A DNA stretch of 64,000 bases from the NCBI RefSeq assembly GCF_029953285.1, contig NZ_JASAOI010000010.1:62001-126000 (forward strand), given 5' to 3'. A program made the position numbers and the translations under genes. A model generated the notes under the pieces. The model was given only the letters and a program-made list of their open reading frames with translations, had not been told where the DNA came from and did no database searches. Positions 5,448 through 19,152 of this stretch are shown piece after piece; the first letter of the stretch is position 1; each line of letters starts with the position of its first letter. The DNA is from Yinghuangia seranimata. GTDB taxonomy: Bacteria > Actinomycetota > Actinomycetes > Streptomycetales > Streptomycetaceae.

Positions 5448-5476
5448 GTGGGTGCTACTCCTGCTCCGTGGTGCTG

Positions 5477-8293
5477 TCAGCAGCGTGGGAGGCCGCTGGA
5501 GAACGTCCCGCGCGCCGAATTCGGCGTGCGGATGTAGAGGTCGCTGACGTACCCGCTGGCGCCCTTCCATTCGACGCGGTCCCAGATGTTCCCGGACGCC
5601 GTCTTGTCGTCGCGGGTGACCTGCTCGCCGGCCGTCTGGCAGTACACGTCGATCGACCCGTTGTAGCCCGCCGGTATCGCCCCGACGCGGTGCCCGGTGC
5701 TCGCCGCCGGCTCGCTGCGCACCCCCACGTCGACCCCGTTGTTGCTGTTGGGGCCGAGGACGTACGGCGTCGCCTTGGGCGTGAGGTCGAGCGTGACGAC
5801 GGTCGGCGTGCCGCATCCGGCCGGGTTCCCGGCCTTCACCGTGACCTGGTACTTCTTGCCGGGCGTCAAGCCCTTCACGGTGAACGACGTGCCGGTGATG
5901 TTGTCGTTGTACTTGCCGTCGACCTCGACCACGTACGTGAGCTGGCTCGGGCTCGCGCCGTTGGCCGCGGCGGGCGACCACGTGATGGTGCCGCCGTCGC
6001 CGGCCGCGTTCGGCACGGCCTTGACGCTGCCGACGCCGCCGGGCGTGGTGCACGGGCGTACCGCCGTCGACGACGGCGAGGTCTGGGTGCGACCGCCCGG
6101 GTAGTGGGCGATGACCTTGAAGCTGTACTCGCTGCCGCAGTCGCCGCCGGTGGCCACGAACTGGAACGGCCCGTCGAGGGTCACCTGCGCGGGCGTGGCC
6201 TTCATGCCCGCGGGGGCGTTGCCGGGCAGCTGGAGCGAGTAGTACGAGGGCAGTTCACCGCCGGACGAAGGCGCGAACACGAGGGTGATCTTGCCGACCC
6301 CGGAGGTCGCCTGCGGCTGGCCGGGCGGCGTCGTCGGCGGAGTCGTGGTCGGCGGCTTCGTGGTGGCCGGGGCCGTCGTCACGGGCGCGGTCGTCGCCGG
6401 TGCCGTCGTGGCGGGCGCGGTCGTGGCCGGGGCGGTGGTCGCGGGCGCCGTGGTCGCGGGCGCGGTCGTGGCCGGGGCGGTGGTCGCCGGCTGAGTCGTC
6501 GCGGGCGCGGTCGTCGCCGGGGCGGTGGTCGCCGGGGCGCCCGTCGGCCCGGTGGTCGCGGGGGCCGTGGTCGCCGGGCCGGTGGTGGCCGGACCGGTGG
6601 TGGCCGGATCGCCGGTCGGCGTGCCGGGCCCCGGCTCGGTCCCGGGTCCGGTCGGCTGCGGAGCCTGGGGCTGCTGCGGACCGGTGGGCTGTCCGCCGTG
6701 CGGCGGCTCGGGGACACCGGTGGGCTCGACGCTCGCCGGCGGCTCCGGACGCGCGTGCGTGGGCTGCGGGTTCTGTCGGCCCTGCCCGCCGCCGTTCTGG
6801 TTGCCGTTCTGCCCGCCGCCCTGTCCGAGCGGGAAGCCCCCGTTCACGGTGGCGATGTCGGCGGGGACCGTGGCGCCGTTCTGCCCGGCGGTCGGTCCGG
6901 CGCCGGAGGGCGCGTCGGGAGCGTACTTGCCGACCGGGTGCGCGACGCCGGACGCGTCGACGACCGTCGCGGCGGACGAGTTCTGGTCGTTGACCCACAG
7001 CATGCCGTCGCGGACGAACGACTCCAGCGGGCCGGCCTGCCCGGTCACCTTGATCTGCTGGTCGAACTGCGCCTTGACGGTGTCGTACACGAGCAGGTTG
7101 CCGTGCACGCGGTCCGGCACGTACACCTTGCCGCCGAGCACCTGCGGCGGCGCGTACGAGCCGGCCGTCGCGCCGATGCCGAGCGGAACCGCCGTGACGG
7201 CCCCCTTGTCGAGGTCGACCAGCACCAGCTGGCCGGTGTCGCCGGACAGCACCGGCACCAGCGAGCCGGGCGTGGTCTCGGGCGTCAGCGTCCGGGAGGC
7301 GTCGGCCTGCCCGACCGCCTCGGGCAGCTTCACGGTGAGCGTCGGGCCGCCCTGCGCGACGACCGTGACGGTGCCGGCCTTCGGGTCGGTCACCACCGGC
7401 CGGTCGCCGGCCAGCGTCAGCCGCAGCACGCTGCCCGGCGCGGCGACCGCGACGGGAACTCCCGGCGTGGCGCCGTTGATCGGCAGCAGCTGGCCCTTGT
7501 TGGGTAGCGGCACCCACAGCGTGCCGCGCGAGTCGGCCTGCGCGCGGCCGACCGGCTTGTCGCCGAGGTCGAGCGGCTGGGCGATCGGCTTGAGTTCGAC
7601 CGGGTCGATCGGGCGCACGGTGCCCTGCGCCTCGTCGACGAGCCACGAGCGTCCGCCGCCGGACACCAGGCGCAGGCCGGGCGCGCCGTAGTCGTAGCGG
7701 AACGGAACGGTCAGCTGCGCGGGGTCGATCCGCGAGACGACGCCGGTCTGCTGGTCGACGACCACGACCCGGTTGCCGTCCTCGGTGATCTGGATCGGGT
7801 GGCCCTGCGTGCCCGGCAGCGGGACGCGGCCGTCGGTGCGGCCGGTGGGTCCGTTGACGTGCGAGGCACTGCCGTTGCCGGAGTTGGGCAGCCAGGCGCC
7901 GAGGTCGCCGAGGTTGGGCAGCGCGTCGGCGGCGCCGAGGCCGACCACGACGGACCCCGCGACCAGTGCGCCGACGACGCCCGTGGCGACGATCGCGGTG
8001 ACGCGGTCGGCCTTGGTGCGCAGCCGGCGGCGCAGCCAGCCGCCCTCGGTGTCCTTGTCGGCCGACGCCGCTCCGGCCGCGAGCGCGGCGGTCTTCCCTG
8101 CGCCCGTCTTGACACTCGAACTCACACTGTGTGCCGTGGACTTGGCGAGCGGGTCGGACGCCTTCGCCGGCTCCGCGGTATGCCTGTCGGCACCGCGCAG
8201 GCCGAACCGGCGGCCCTTGGCCGAGCCGGAGCGGCCGTCGCCACCATCGTCGTCAAGCCGGTGCGGCCGCAGGCCGCCGCCGTGTCGATCCAT
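5477..8293 (-). CDS. Membrane-anchored beta-propeller / fibronectin III protein with SH3-like end
   Basis: 938 residues. A basic cytoplasmic N-terminus is followed by one membrane helix at about residues 97-121. Next come a repeated beta-propeller-like region (about 150-480), a Gly/Asn/Gln-rich stretch, a long Thr/Ala/Pro tract built on repeated PATT units (bases about 6356-6615), and fibronectin type III folds (about 690-850). The C-terminal ~70 residues resemble a bacterial SH3 domain (GVRSEP, IDVYC, WDRVEW, GYVSDLYI). The body should lie outside the membrane and bind wall or polymer. It is first in the operon with MoxR, DUF58 and the TgpA-like gene. The ATG at 8293 has a G-rich upstream site. 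The repeat tract is the kind of DNA that changes length by slippage. Confidence 0.8.
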   Translation of the reverse strand: MDRHGGGLRPHRLDDDGGDGRSGSAKGRRFGLRGADRHTAEPAKASDPLAKSTAHSVSSSVKTGAGKTAALAAGAASADKDTEGGWLRRRLRTKADRVTAIVATGVVGALVAGSVVVGLGAADALPNLGDLGAWLPNSGNGSASHVNGPTGRTDGRVPLPGTQGHPIQITEDGNRVVVVDQQTGVVSRIDPAQLTVPFRYDYGAPGLRLVSGGGRSWLVDEAQGTVRPIDPVELKPIAQPLDLGDKPVGRAQADSRGTLWVPLPNKGQLLPINGATPGVPVAVAAPGSVLRLTLAGDRPVVTDPKAGTVTVVAQGGPTLTVKLPEAVGQADASRTLTPETTPGSLVPVLSGDTGQLVLVDLDKGAVTAVPLGIGATAGSYAPPQVLGGKVYVPDRVHGNLLVYDTVKAQFDQQIKVTGQAGPLESFVRDGMLWVNDQNSSAATVVDASGVAHPVGKYAPDAPSGAGPTAGQNGATVPADIATVNGGFPLGQGGGQNGNQNGGGQGRQNPQPTHARPEPPASVEPTGVPEPPHGGQPTGPQQPQAPQPTGPGTEPGPGTPTGDPATTGPATTGPATTAPATTGPTGAPATTAPATTAPATTQPATTAPATTAPATTAPATTAPATTAPATTAPATTAPVTTAPATTKPPTTTPPTTPPGQPQATSGVGKITLVFAPSSGGELPSYYSLQLPGNAPAGMKATPAQVTLDGPFQFVATGGDCGSEYSFKVIAHYPGGRTQTSPSSTAVRPCTTPGGVGSVKAVPNAAGDGGTITWSPAAANGASPSQLTYVVEVDGKYNDNITGTSFTVKGLTPGKKYQVTVKAGNPAGCGTPTVVTLDLTPKATPYVLGPNSNNGVDVGVRSEPAASTGHRVGAIPAGYNGSIDVYCQTAGEQVTRDDKTASGNIWDRVEWKGASGYVSDLYIRTPNSARGTFSSGLPRC

Positions 8294-17562: not shown

Positions 17563-17617
17563 CGCGGCGGGGGGGGGGGGGGGGGGGGCCCCCCCCGCCC
17601 CCCCCCCCCCGCCGCGG
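17563..17617. other. G20/C22 homopolymer inverted repeat
   Basis: A run of 20 G (17569-17588) is followed directly by 8 C, one G and 13 C, flanked by CGGC and GCCG arms. It sits just after the BNR gene stop, where a terminator hairpin is expected. Such a pure G/C run is also a known place for sequencing or assembly error, so the exact bases should be doubted. Confidence 0.6.
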
Positions 17618-17833: not shown

Positions 17834-18031
17834 AAGGCGATACCGCACACAACATCAACGGGGGACCCGGGGTGGCGGGCGGCGGCGGCCTCGTCATGGA
17901 ACCCGGACGAAATCACGACTGATCCGTGAAGTTCGCAATCGGTTCGTTTTCCCAGGGGCCGAGAATATCACGCTCCGCAGTCACGCGATTACTCTTCGCG
18001 AATCACCCTGGAGTGGGAGTGAATTGGTGGA

Positions 18032-18058
18032 GCCCGGGGGTCTAGCCTGCCCCCGGGC
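18032..18058 (-). terminator. Terminator after the tRNA-like RNAs
   Basis: A perfect 9-bp stem GCCCGGGGG/CCCCCGGGC has a 9-nt loop. It lies about 45 nt downstream of the second tRNA-like unit in the direction of transcription. A second hairpin, CCCGGC/GCCGGG (18083-18105), precedes it and overlaps the tail of that unit. Confidence 0.6.
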
Positions 18059-18100
18059 CCCGGTGTGCCACCGATCGTGTGGCCCGGCACGTTTAAGAGG

Positions 18101-18204
18101 CCGGGTCATTCTGAAATCGCCGTGTCTTCCCATTGGACCATCTCCGCACGAAGCGCGGAGAACGGGAGTCGAACCCGCATCCGACGACGACCGCCCGACC
18201 CCGG
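18101..18204 (-). ncRNA. Permuted tRNA-like RNA, unit B
   Basis: Read on the minus strand, the 3' half of a tRNA comes first: T-arm GCGGG-TTCGACT-CCCGT (18162-18178), acceptor strand TCTCCGC (18155-18161) and a G. A 7-nt linker including that G (18148-18154) follows, and then the 5' half: acceptor strand GCGGAGA (18141-18147), TG, a D-arm with stem GTC/GAC and an AATGGG loop, and a stem CGGCG (18118-18122). The two acceptor strands pair 7 of 7 only in this permuted order. CGGCG can pair with CGTCG in the leader, and an outer helix GACCC/GGGTC may extend it. This is a tRNA mimic of the bacterial Y-RNA (YrlA) kind or a circularly permuted tRNA gene. The loop reading ATTTCA would suit a UUC anticodon but is uncertain. 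Confidence 0.6.
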
Positions 18205-18247
18205 GCGATCCGGGCCGTGGTGGCGAATACTCAGACTGGAGCGAGAA

Positions 18248-18345
18248 GTTGACGAGGACCGCGGCTGCCTCTGCCAGTTGGGCCACCCCGGCGTGCGTGT
18301 GCCGGGGGCAGGATTCGAACCTGCACCGTACCGCGTTGTGACAAC
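18248..18345 (-). ncRNA. Permuted tRNA-like RNA, unit A
   Basis: It has the same order as unit B, 43 nt upstream of it. T-arm GCAGG-TTCGAAT-CCTGC (18308-18324) and acceptor strand CCCCGGC (18301-18307) come first. An 8-nt linker follows (18293-18300), then acceptor strand GCCGGGG (18286-18292), TG, and a D-arm (18267-18283) with stem GCC/GGC and the canonical AACTGGCAGA loop. The acceptor pairs 7 of 7. The stem GCCGC (18261-18265) pairs with GCGGT (18330-18334), leaving a normal 5-nt variable region. Beyond it, CAAC and GTTG could close an outer helix. No standard anticodon loop with U33 is clear, which favours a tRNA mimic over a working tRNA. It starts about 75 nt after the stop of the 243-residue gene and is probably co-transcribed with it. 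Confidence 0.62.
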
Positions 18346-18420: not shown

Positions 18421-19152
18421 CTACCCGAGCAGGTAGTCGAACACCACGGCGCCGACGCTGCGGTCGGTCACCTCGGCGCTGTTCGCCTCCTCCCGGGCGA
18501 ACTTGACGGCGTGCTGCAACTTCTCGACCCGGTCGAGGAGTTCGTTGATGCGGCGGGCGGGCAGCGCGCCGGAGAACTTCACGGTCGTCCAGTAGCCGAC
18601 GGCGACGTCCTCGAAGTACATCTCGACCTGCGCCGGGTGCTCCGCGGTCGCCTCGGCCTTGACGTGGTTCCGCGGCACCTTCTTCGTGCGGACGGTGCGC
18701 ACCGGCTCGGTGCGCCACGCGTCCGTCGACGGGTCCTGCGTCCAGGTCTCGGCGGCGTCGAGCACCGGCAGCTTGCGCACGAACGTGTGCAGGTCTACCA
18801 GCTGCTTCTCGAGGAAAAGCAGGTAGGAGACCGGGACTTCGCGCAGCAGCGTGGTGCCGGCGACCACCACGTCGGCGCACGCCTCGCGGTTGGACCAGTC
18901 CTTCGTCGCGGTGACGTCGAACAGCCGGGTCAGGGTGGCCGCGGTGGCGCGCAGCACGTCCTCGGCCTTGACCTGCACGCGGGTGGACTCGGGCGGCAGT
19001 TGCTCGCCTTCCTCGTCCTTGGCCTGGTAGGTGCGCGAAATGCCGGACAGCAGCGTGGCCTTCTGCAGGTCGTGGTGCGCCTGCGTCAGGTCCTGGAAGG
19101 CCTTGGCCTTGACGCCCTTCTCGACGGCGATGATCTGGTTCAGCTTCGTCAC
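18421..19152 (-). CDS. Conserved-looking cytoplasmic protein of unknown function, upstream of tRNA-like RNAs
   Basis: 243 residues from GTG 19152, with AGGGTGG 6 nt upstream. It is soluble, with no signal or membrane segment, and mixed charge. It contains a Lys-rich N-terminal helix (IIAVEKGVKAKAFQDL), a central segment rich in aromatic and hydrophobic residues (VPVSYLLFLEKQLVDLHTF), a basic stretch TVRTKKVPRNHVKAEAT, and a C-terminal helix VKFAREEANSAEV. I recognise the general look of a conserved actinobacterial protein but no defined function. Its codon use is normal for the window. Because the two tRNA-like RNAs follow directly on the same strand, an RNA-related role is a reasonable but unproven guess. 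Confidence 0.8.
   Translation of the reverse strand: MTKLNQIIAVEKGVKAKAFQDLTQAHHDLQKATLLSGISRTYQAKDEEGEQLPPESTRVQVKAEDVLRATAATLTRLFDVTATKDWSNREACADVVVAGTTLLREVPVSYLLFLEKQLVDLHTFVRKLPVLDAAETWTQDPSTDAWRTEPVRTVRTKKVPRNHVKAEATAEHPAQVEMYFEDVAVGYWTTVKFSGALPARRINELLDRVEKLQHAVKFAREEANSAEVTDRSVGAVVFDYLLG

What the first reader, a model, noticed from the sequence alone, without database searches (positions are those of the whole stretch)
18101..18345. Two tandem tRNA-like RNAs with circularly permuted halves
On the minus strand, each unit has a T-arm and 3' acceptor strand first, then a 7-8 nt loop, then the matching 5' acceptor strand, TG and a D-arm with GG in the loop. Both acceptor stems pair 7 of 7 only in this order. 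The T-loops are TTCGAAT and TTCGACT with perfect or near-perfect 5-bp stems. The conventional pairing (5' half of A with 3' half of B) leaves a C-C clash and wobbles. Bacterial Y RNAs of the YrlA type are known tRNA mimics that occur near Ro60 genes, but no Ro60 (TROVE) gene is in this window. The alternatives are true permuted tRNA genes or an unlinked Y-RNA class. Two in a row, tied to a gene of unknown function, is unusual.
Basis: partly seen in the sequence, partly recalled or inferred. Interest (0 to 1): 0.93.

Follow-up and report, generated by a model that had tools for sequence, protein, structure and literature searches.

The report
Paired tRNA-mimic RNAs beside DUF7873 gene
Directly after a protein gene of unknown function lie two RNA hairpins whose heads imitate a tRNA with its halves swapped, and such RNAs recur beside the same gene in Streptomyces-type bacteria and in phages of very different hosts, pointing to a so far undescribed RNA-protein machine.

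Summary
On the minus strand, 3' of a DUF7873 gene (18421-19152), lie two long hairpins, each with a head in the order T-arm, 3' acceptor strand, loop, 5' acceptor strand, D-arm. One or two such units follow DUF7873 in Streptomyces, Kitasatospora and Nonomuraea and in phages of Arthrobacter, Gordonia, Rhodococcus, Pseudanabaena, Klebsiella, Vibrio and Rhizobium, with many compensatory changes; chance controls are almost empty.

The heads have YrlA-type Y RNA architecture. But the window's genome has its Ro60 gene, with its own Y RNA, on another contig; the 3' basal motif found in 7 of 12 canonical-type Y RNAs occurs in 0 of 208 DUF7873 loci; and 13 of 14 DUF7873 phages lack a TROVE match. They do not look like ordinary permuted tRNA genes: the flanks pair on into a basal stem.

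Best reading: a Y-RNA-like, Ro60-independent RNP in which DUF7873 holds a double tRNA mimic. Conservation, structure and linkage are shown; binding and function (adaptor or decoy for tRNA-binding proteins) are inferred. One search of the paper library for DUF7873 found nothing; the main Y RNA papers are not held there.

The parts
18421..19152 (-). DUF7873 gene (PF25283), 243 aa
   Evidence: Pfam 387 bits against cut-off 27; 15 aligned relatives at 28-91% identity
18338..18363 (-). strand A of the unit 1 basal stem, hexamer-periodic
   Evidence: pairs with strand B in the MFE fold; cognate A:B pairing better than non-cognate in phages; lag-6 periodicity in relatives
18267..18324 (-). unit 1 head: T-arm 18324-18308, 3' acceptor 18307-18301, loop 18300-18293, 5' acceptor 18292-18286, D-arm 18283-18267
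   Evidence: sequence; conserved; covariation; sub-threshold YrlA match 21.5 bits
18330..18334 (-). upstream strand of the anticodon-position stem of unit 1; pairs with 18261-18265
   Evidence: sequence; helix 1, 55.4% of cells paired (weak)
18261..18265 (-). downstream strand of the anticodon-position stem of unit 1
   Evidence: as above
18222..18257 (-). strand B of the unit 1 basal stem
18210..18224 (-). 5' strand of the unit 2 basal stem (18224-18219 and 18215-18210)
   Evidence: helices 1 and 2, 96.7% and 97.5% of cells paired
18185..18190 (-). upstream strand of the anticodon-position stem of unit 2; pairs with 18117-18122
   Evidence: helix 3, 54.9% paired (weak)
18124..18178 (-). unit 2 head: T-arm 18178-18162, 3' acceptor 18161-18155, loop 18154-18148, 5' acceptor 18147-18141, D-arm 18138-18124
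   Evidence: sequence; sub-threshold YrlA match 23.1 bits
18117..18122 (-). downstream strand of the anticodon-position stem of unit 2
   Evidence: as above
18090..18097 (-). conserved motif CTTAAACG on the 3' side of the unit 2 basal stem
   Evidence: pattern CT[TC]AA[AG]C[GT] in 76 of 114 chromosomal and 42 of 94 phage loci, 0 of 12 canonical-type Y RNAs
18067..18087 (-). 3' strand of the unit 2 basal stem (18087-18082 and 18072-18067)
18029..18062 (-). strong G+C hairpin that closes the locus, terminator-like by position
   Evidence: paired in the MFE fold; hairpin visible in most rows of the alignment of relatives; termination itself not tested

Best explanation
The locus makes a small RNA-protein complex. 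The gene encodes DUF7873; directly downstream lie one or two long hairpin RNAs. Each hairpin has a basal stem and a head that folds like the acceptor/T/D part of a tRNA, but with its ends at the anticodon position and the acceptor end closed by a loop, as in YrlA-type Y RNAs. Shown: the RNA sequences are conserved and structured, heads and basal stems covary, and they go with DUF7873 rather than with Ro60. Inferred: they are transcribed; DUF7873 binds the basal stems (in unit 1 a helix interrupted about every six bases) and takes the place Ro60 has in Y RNPs. Inferred, less certain: the exposed heads recruit or occupy proteins that recognise the tRNA elbow and acceptor stem (tRNA-modifying enzymes, PNPase as in the Ro60-Y RNA machine, RNase P, or tRNA-targeting effectors), as an adaptor or a decoy. 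The frequent place among phage tRNA genes fits a role in managing or protecting tRNA during infection.
For: Linkage: DUF7873 matches 32 of 61 related genomes, 31 with a near full-length gene, and all 31 have unit matches beside it; every listed unit-model match of 65 bits or more lies beside a DUF7873 gene (list cut at weak matches; units of these genomes are among the model's training rows). 26 of 30 loci have both units, 4 one (detector set at 6 of 7 acceptor pairs). 75 of 79 viral loci have a same-strand match within about 1.5 kb 3' (counted by hand; many are training rows); with the strict detector 41 had two or more, 31 one, 7 none. 14 of 15 phage records examined have at least one 7/7 unit. 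Structure: 99 non-redundant units, 82.5% of cells paired against 57.8% shuffled and at most 51.2% slid; 534 double-change cells against 208. The unit 2 basal stem, not used in picking the sequences, pairs in 96.7% and 97.5% of cells. Cognate basal strands pair better than non-cognate in 40 phages: A:B -15.6 against -12.8, unit 2 -28.2 against -18.6 kcal/mol, 0 of 5000 permutations each. Separate from Ro60: in 12 canonical-type Y RNAs (10 at TROVE genes, 2 not) the 5' motif GTGCGNAG occurs in 12 and the 3' motif in 7; the 3' motif occurs in 0 of 114 and 0 of 94 DUF7873 loci, and three motifs of the DUF7873 RNAs in 0 of the 12. Y RNA architecture and the Rsr/PNPase role: passages of PMC7790460, PMC8394870, PMC11472068.
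Against: No binding, expression or phenotype data. The DUF7873 model (pLDDT 92.8, pTM 0.69) has no confident fold match, so nothing marks it as an RNA binder. Its usual place as a 3' UTR also allows a cis role. Unit 1 is dispensable: in 11 of 80 genome loci a plain hairpin stands in its place. In L086 and L087 (near-identical viruses) the RNA lies about 8.4 kb further 3', L111 has no match above 22.1 bits, L123 has it on the other strand. DUF7873 and TROVE co-occur more than chance would suggest: 21 of 27 genomes with TROVE against 11 of 34 without have DUF7873 (kinship not corrected). The anticodon-position stem is only about 55% paired. In chromosomes the A:B cognate test is not significant (564 of 5000, only 8 non-redundant loci). 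The short 5' Y RNA motif also occurs in 17 of 114 and 5 of 94 DUF7873 loci, and the DUF7873-type motifs are less constant in phages (25, 19 and 42 of 94) than in chromosomes (89, 104 and 76 of 114).
Confidence: 0.6

Rival explanations
1. The RNAs are ordinary Y RNAs that happen to lie far from the Ro60 gene; the Ro60 protein of the cell binds them.
For: Same head order, basal stem present; sub-threshold YrlA matches of 23.1 and 21.5 bits. Of 61 genomes 21 have both DUF7873 and TROVE, more than chance would suggest. The control genome Deinobacterium chartae has both.
Against: 11 of 32 DUF7873 genomes and 13 of 14 DUF7873 phages have no TROVE match (the TROVE matches found are partial, so a divergent one could be missed). 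Canonical-type Y RNAs share basal motifs of which the 3' one is absent here, and the window's genome has such a Y RNA upstream of its own Ro60 gene (L247).
Confidence: 0.12
2. A cis element: the structures form the 3' UTR of the DUF7873 mRNA and stabilise it or let DUF7873 or a tRNA-binding protein control its own message.
For: Same strand and directly 3' in most loci; a G+C hairpin follows.
Against: In L086/L087 the RNA lies about 8.4 kb away, though 3' on the same strand, and in L123 on the opposite strand. The depositors of phage FBKp24 annotate a promoter between gene and RNA (their annotation only).
Confidence: 0.13
3. True permuted tRNA genes: transcripts are joined at the anticodon and cut at the acceptor loop to give normal tRNAs.
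For: A base followed by CCA directly after the acceptor strand in 68 of 137 phage units (48 of 87 first, 20 of 50 second) and 41 of 212 chromosomal units (37 of 114 first, 4 of 98 second), which suggests tRNA ancestry and perhaps processing at that loop.
Against: The flanks pair on into a basal stem instead of an anticodon loop; no Rfam intron family at gathering score; CCA mostly absent in chromosomes.
Confidence: 0.04
4. An artefact: neighbouring conventional tRNA genes, or their remains, read across the spacer.
For: It does happen: tandem tRNA-Asn and tRNA-Arg genes match the unit model (53.9-64.1 bits) and the Rfam YrlA model (33.6-42.5 bits).
Against: No tRNA in the window; covarying basal stems and conservation of the whole element beside one gene are not expected of tandem tRNA genes.
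Confidence: 0.01

Closest known systems
Bacterial Y RNA, YrlA type (Rfam RF02553), partner of Ro60/Rsr
   Same: Head order T-arm, 3' acceptor, loop, 5' acceptor, D-arm; ends paired in a basal stem; tandem copies at some loci; known from bacteria and phages (phages: recalled)
   Different: Linked to DUF7873 instead of TROVE; lacks the 3' basal motif of canonical-type Y RNAs of these genomes; own conserved motifs (CUGA-type hexamers, GCUCCA, CUUAAACG); scores 21.5-23.1 bits against the gathering score 69, where matches at TROVE loci score 26.7-48.1
Permuted tRNA genes of algae and archaea (recalled; permuted tRNA genes are mentioned in PMC10085705, passages read)
   Same: 3' half encoded before the 5' half; CCA often encoded in the loop, in phages
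   Different: No anticodon loop; basal stem instead
Permuted (two-piece) tmRNA genes (recalled; permuted tmRNA genes are mentioned in PMC10085705, passages read)
   Same: tRNA-like end made of swapped halves
   Different: D-arm present, two heads; no tag ORF was looked for; no tmRNA match at gathering score in the window
DUF7873 (Pfam PF25283)
   Same: Full-length match, 387 bits
   Different: The family is labelled as of unknown function; the RNA beside it is the new element

Membership tests
Bacterial Y RNA (YrlA type) | circularly permuted tRNA-like head | tested here: met
Bacterial Y RNA (YrlA type) | 5' and 3' strands form a long basal stem | tested here: met
   unit 2; unit 1: (significant in phages, not in the small chromosomal set)
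Bacterial Y RNA (YrlA type) | Rfam RF02553 gathering score (69 bits) | tested here: not met
   23.1 and 21.5 bits; the matches at TROVE loci of related genomes also miss it, at 26.7-48.1 bits, so the criterion is weak here
Bacterial Y RNA (YrlA type) | encoded next to a Ro60/TROVE gene | tested here: not met
   single TROVE match of G000 is on contig C41, window on C73; TROVE in 1 of 14 DUF7873 phages, there about 5 kb away
Bacterial Y RNA (YrlA type) | basal motifs of canonical-type Y RNAs of these genomes | tested here: not met
   3' motif 0 of 114 and 0 of 94 (7 of 12 in the Y RNAs); the short 5' motif in 17 of 114 and 5 of 94, against 12 of 12
Bacterial Y RNA (YrlA type) | binds Ro60/Rsr | not testable with these tools
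   needs pull-down or gel shift
Permuted tRNA gene | ends would join into an anticodon arm with a 7-base loop | tested here: not met
   flanking strands pair on into a basal stem
Permuted tRNA gene | mature tRNA is made | not testable with these tools
   needs RNA sequencing
Permuted tRNA gene | CCA or processing site between the halves | tested here: inconclusive
   NCCA in 68 of 137 phage and 41 of 212 chromosomal units
Self-splicing permuted intron-exon | group I or II intron core around the exon halves | tested here: inconclusive
   no intron family at gathering score in the window or in 14 phage loci
DUF7873 (PF25283) | Pfam gathering score | tested here: met
   387 bits, cut-off 27

The most novel reading that the evidence does not exclude
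DUF7873 founds a second, Ro60-independent class of tRNA-mimic ribonucleoprotein, spread by large phages across several phyla and domesticated in Streptomycetaceae: the protein holds a double tRNA mimic by periodic basal stems, and the heads capture tRNA-binding factors of the host.
Probability: 0.45. Interest if true: 0.92.

Novelty: new variant of a known kind. Interest (0 to 1): 0.85.

Why it matters
Bacterial Y RNAs are known as partners of Ro60. A widespread, conserved tRNA-mimic RNA that goes with another protein would mean the tRNA-mimic head is a module used by more than one machine, give a family of unknown function (DUF7873) a partner and a testable role, and add an RNA that the phage records examined leave unannotated or misread. 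It would also let the open question of what Y-RNA heads bind be asked in an independent system.

Tried and rejected
Permuted tRNA genes and permuted introns: rejected or unsupported as told in the rivals. A 'third class' of unit matches, strong also in genomes lacking DUF7873 and TROVE, turned out to be tandem tRNA-Asn genes in all 9 loci of it that I fetched (L236-L244). Single-stranded hexamer arrays coated by a DUF7873 oligomer: considered because YT dinucleotides recur at lag 6; weakened because the motif is nearly its own reverse complement and because strands A and B pair with each other. In one search a looser pattern (three hexamers A..YT within 420 bases) occurs in 96 of 113 chromosomal and 44 of 91 phage loci, in 64 and 45 on the reverse complement, in 0 and 0 in the gene itself, and in 2 of 1130 and 6 of 910 shuffles; of 9 phages of non-actinobacterial hosts only 3 (L050, L052, L056) have it. 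Fold comparison of DUF7873: nothing confident (Foldseek PDB best E 0.066; viral library best E 0.019; VIA best Z 7.8 to 3kdq_A, rmsd 8.2), which excludes nothing. NCBIfam, PHROGs, PADLOC: no family at the thresholds used. Solved structures by sequence: nothing below E 0.12. Flanking genes differ among the four loci outside Yinghuangia that were scanned, apart from DUF1996 shared by L145 and L147, and gave no function. An empty-site comparison in G001 failed: the flanking oxidase has no close relative there (best 38% identity over part). Papers: no paper with DUF7873; seven other searches listed none that by title or abstract start treats this RNA; passages of six papers were read (PMC7790460, PMC8394870, PMC11472068, PMC7824862, PMC10085705, PMC9569102), none whole. 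PMC9569102 mentions yrlA predictions in some mycobacteria; PMC7824862 mentions TROVE proteins in a few jumbo phages. Chen 2014, Sim 2018, Sim 2020 and Wang 2018 are not held and are known to me only by recall and citation.

Rows dropped: unit alignment A4 used 99 non-redundant of 276 units; units with loops over 12 bases, without T at position 8 or without GG in the D-loop were left out before. The protein alignment A3 used 75 sequences: the window, 68 of 80 viral loci and 6 of 80 genome loci; L110 was dropped for an internal stop, L111 and L123 were dropped with it although no error named them, and L067, L091, L092, L097, L105, L119, L134, L135 and L140 were never put in. L140, cut off by its contig end, was left out. 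One search aligned 40 non-redundant of 86 two-unit chromosomal loci; one search used 40 of 48 phage and 8 of 97 chromosomal loci after removing similar ones; one search used 20 chosen chromosomal loci.

Full report
What is there. On the minus strand, 3' of a 243-residue DUF7873 gene (18421-19152; Pfam 387 bits), the sequence holds two heads, each in the order T-arm, 3' acceptor strand, 7-8 base loop, 5' acceptor strand (7 of 7 pairs), two bases, D-arm. ARAGORN finds no tRNA in the window, Rfam gives nothing at gathering score. At relaxed threshold YrlA matches at 23.1 and 21.5 bits (E 0.014 and 0.042), one match on each unit; a tRNA-Sec match of 21.3 bits (E 0.094) reads the T-arm of unit 2 the conventional way.

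Conservation. DUF7873 matches 32 of 61 related genomes. A detector written for the permuted order (6 of 7 acceptor pairs) found both units 3' of the gene in 26 of 30 loci and one in 4 of 30. With 7 of 7 pairs required, 69 of these 80 have two units and 11 one, against 0 of 80 in the 5' flanks, 2 of 80 on the reverse complement and 2 of 1600 shuffles. L142, Yinghuangia soli, has the window's kinds of flanking gene, so the window is from a Yinghuangia-like Streptomycetaceae genome (inference).

Phages. 72 phage records encode the protein: Vibrio, Gordonia, Rhizobium, Klebsiella, Serratia, Arthrobacter, Pseudanabaena, Rhodococcus, Microcoleus. In 14 of 15 records examined at least one 7/7 permuted unit follows the gene; several lie amid tRNA genes. 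The exception, Microcoleus phage L048, has a HEARO element (RF02033, 3950-4159) starting where the 5' acceptor strand of a unit with a long loop appears to end (by eye); one weak unit match lies further on (28 bits). Of 79 virus contigs, 41 have two or more strict units, 31 one and 7 none; with a covariance model 75 of 79 have a same-strand match within about 1.5 kb 3' (my count). Of the other four, L086 and L087 carry two units about 8.4 kb further 3' on the same strand, L111 has nothing above 22.1 bits, and L123 has them on the opposite strand.

Structure. In 99 non-redundant units every one of 21 pairs has changes on both sides (18.2 expected in shuffles); 82.5% of cells pair against 57.8% in shuffles and 39.8-51.2% with slid partners. 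The acceptor and T-stem figures are inflated because the detector required them, and GG in the D-loop was required too; the pairs of the D-stem (64.9%) and of the anticodon-position stem (55.4%) were not. The basal stem of unit 2, proposed from the fold of 40 chromosomal loci and of the window but not used to pick sequences, pairs in 96.7% and 97.5% of cells over 20 chromosomal sequences, with changes on both sides in two and four of six pairs each; the anticodon-position stem there only 54.9%. Cognate basal strands pair better than swapped ones in 40 phages for both units (0 of 5000 permutations each); in 8 chromosomal loci this holds for unit 2 (0 of 5000) but not for unit 1 (564 of 5000). 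So each unit is a long hairpin with a tRNA-like head, as in a Y RNA.

A six-base rhythm. In the strand before unit 1 a YT dinucleotide recurs at six bases (chromosomes 0.50, z 33.9; phages 0.38, z 16.7), and in the strand after it too (z 16.6 and 9.9), there also at seven bases in chromosomes (z 16.7); the strand after unit 2 shows no such rhythm at six. Runs of three or more hexamers occur in 71 of 100 chromosomal and 39 of 78 phage loci, against 0.7% and 5.8% of shuffles. Since the two strands pair, the simplest reading is a helix interrupted about every six bases. In the 11 one-unit genome loci the head of unit 1 is a plain hairpin, while strand B stays in 11 and strand A, by strict pattern, in 9.

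Not the Ro60 system. TROVE matches 27 of 61 genomes, by partial matches; combining searches have both, 11 DUF7873 only, 6 TROVE only, 23 neither. The two thus co-occur (21 of 27 against 11 of 34; kinship not corrected), which speaks for a shared background or, less likely, a shared partner. Of 12 TROVE loci scanned, 6 have YrlA-like matches, 3 of them two (26.7-48.1 bits). The window's genome has one TROVE match, on another contig, with a YrlA-like RNA upstream of it (L247, 42.4 bits). Twelve such RNAs, ten at TROVE genes and two not (L245, L250), share GTGCGNAG (12 of 12) and a 3' motif (7 of 12); the 3' motif is in 0 of 114 chromosomal and 0 of 94 phage DUF7873 loci, the 5' motif in 17 and 5. 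Three motifs of the DUF7873 RNAs are in 0 of the 12, in 89, 104 and 76 of 114 chromosomal loci, but only in 25, 19 and 42 of 94 phage loci. TROVE occurs in 1 of 14 DUF7873 phages (Rhizobium phage TM21B).

A trap. The unit model also matches tandem identical tRNA genes read across their spacer (53.9-64.1 bits), as does Rfam's YrlA model (33.6-42.5 bits). Every listed match of 65 bits or more in 61 genomes lies beside DUF7873.

CCA. After the 3' acceptor strand a base plus CCA follows in 48 of 87 first and 20 of 50 second units of phages, and in 37 of 114 and 4 of 98 in chromosomes. This suggests descent from tRNA and perhaps processing of the loop in phages; in chromosomes it is mostly absent.

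The protein. The AlphaFold model is confident (pLDDT 92.8, pTM 0.69; the five models range from 60.8 to 92.8), with long helices and long beta hairpins; no confident structural relative was found. Among 75 sequences the invariant residues include Y42, W137, W188, K116, K158 and H172; over the wider set only W137 of these stays invariant. RNA binding is inferred only from linkage. In a sample of 296 Actinomycetota genomes 6 have the family, all in the window's family; one search shows it in a second family of the order as well. The control genome Deinobacterium chartae has it too.

Mechanism. Y RNAs of YrlA type tie Rsr to PNPase through a tRNA-like head (PMC8394870, PMC7790460, passages). By analogy DUF7873 would hold the basal stems and the heads would recruit or occupy tRNA-binding proteins. 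RNA conservation, structure and linkage are shown here; transcription, binding and purpose are inferred.

Novelty. No paper with the name DUF7873 is in the library, and seven other searches listed none that by title or abstract start treats this RNA. The main Y RNA papers are not held, so a mention there cannot be excluded; from recall, Chen 2014 reports Y RNAs near Ro60 genes.

Noticed in passing
L048 3950-4159 (Microcoleus phage My-WqHQDG): A HEARO (IscB-type guide RNA, recalled) element begins where the 5' acceptor strand of a permuted unit appears to end; several further T-arm-like pieces follow at about 5460-5940 (by eye).
   Followed up: partly
L236-L244, L248 (G-handle genomes): Tandem tRNA-Asn and tRNA-Arg genes score 33.6-42.5 bits with Rfam YrlA when read across the spacer: a source of false Y RNAs.
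   Followed up: yes
L245 and L246 (own genome, contigs C26 and C49): Two equally scoring YrlA-like RNAs (39.3 bits with the unit model); L245 has the Y RNA 5' motif, and the single TROVE match of this genome lies on another contig.
   Followed up: partly
L052 and record MN988560.1 113363-114106 (Rhizobium phage RHph_TM21B): One phage with both a DUF7873 gene and a TROVE gene, about 5 kb apart in a tRNA-rich region.
   Followed up: no
L044 1072-1600 (Gordonia phage Phendrix): A tmRNA match (89 bits) in the tRNA cluster near the DUF7873 gene.
   Followed up: no
L110 4001-4726: The DUF7873 reading frame of this virus contig contains one stop codon (decay, recoding or error).
   Followed up: no
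L249 2230-2504 (G018): A fragment of DUF7873 followed by a weakly matching second unit (38.1 bits): protein and RNA may decay together.
   Followed up: partly
L054 3802-3833 and 4018-4097 (Klebsiella phage FBKp24): Depositors annotate a promoter between gene and RNA, and a 'suppressor tRNA' that overlaps the T-arm of unit 2, probably a misreading of the permuted unit.
   Followed up: no
window 17569-17610: A run of about 20 G followed by a run of mostly C, close to an inverted homopolymer; natural or an assembly effect.
   Followed up: no
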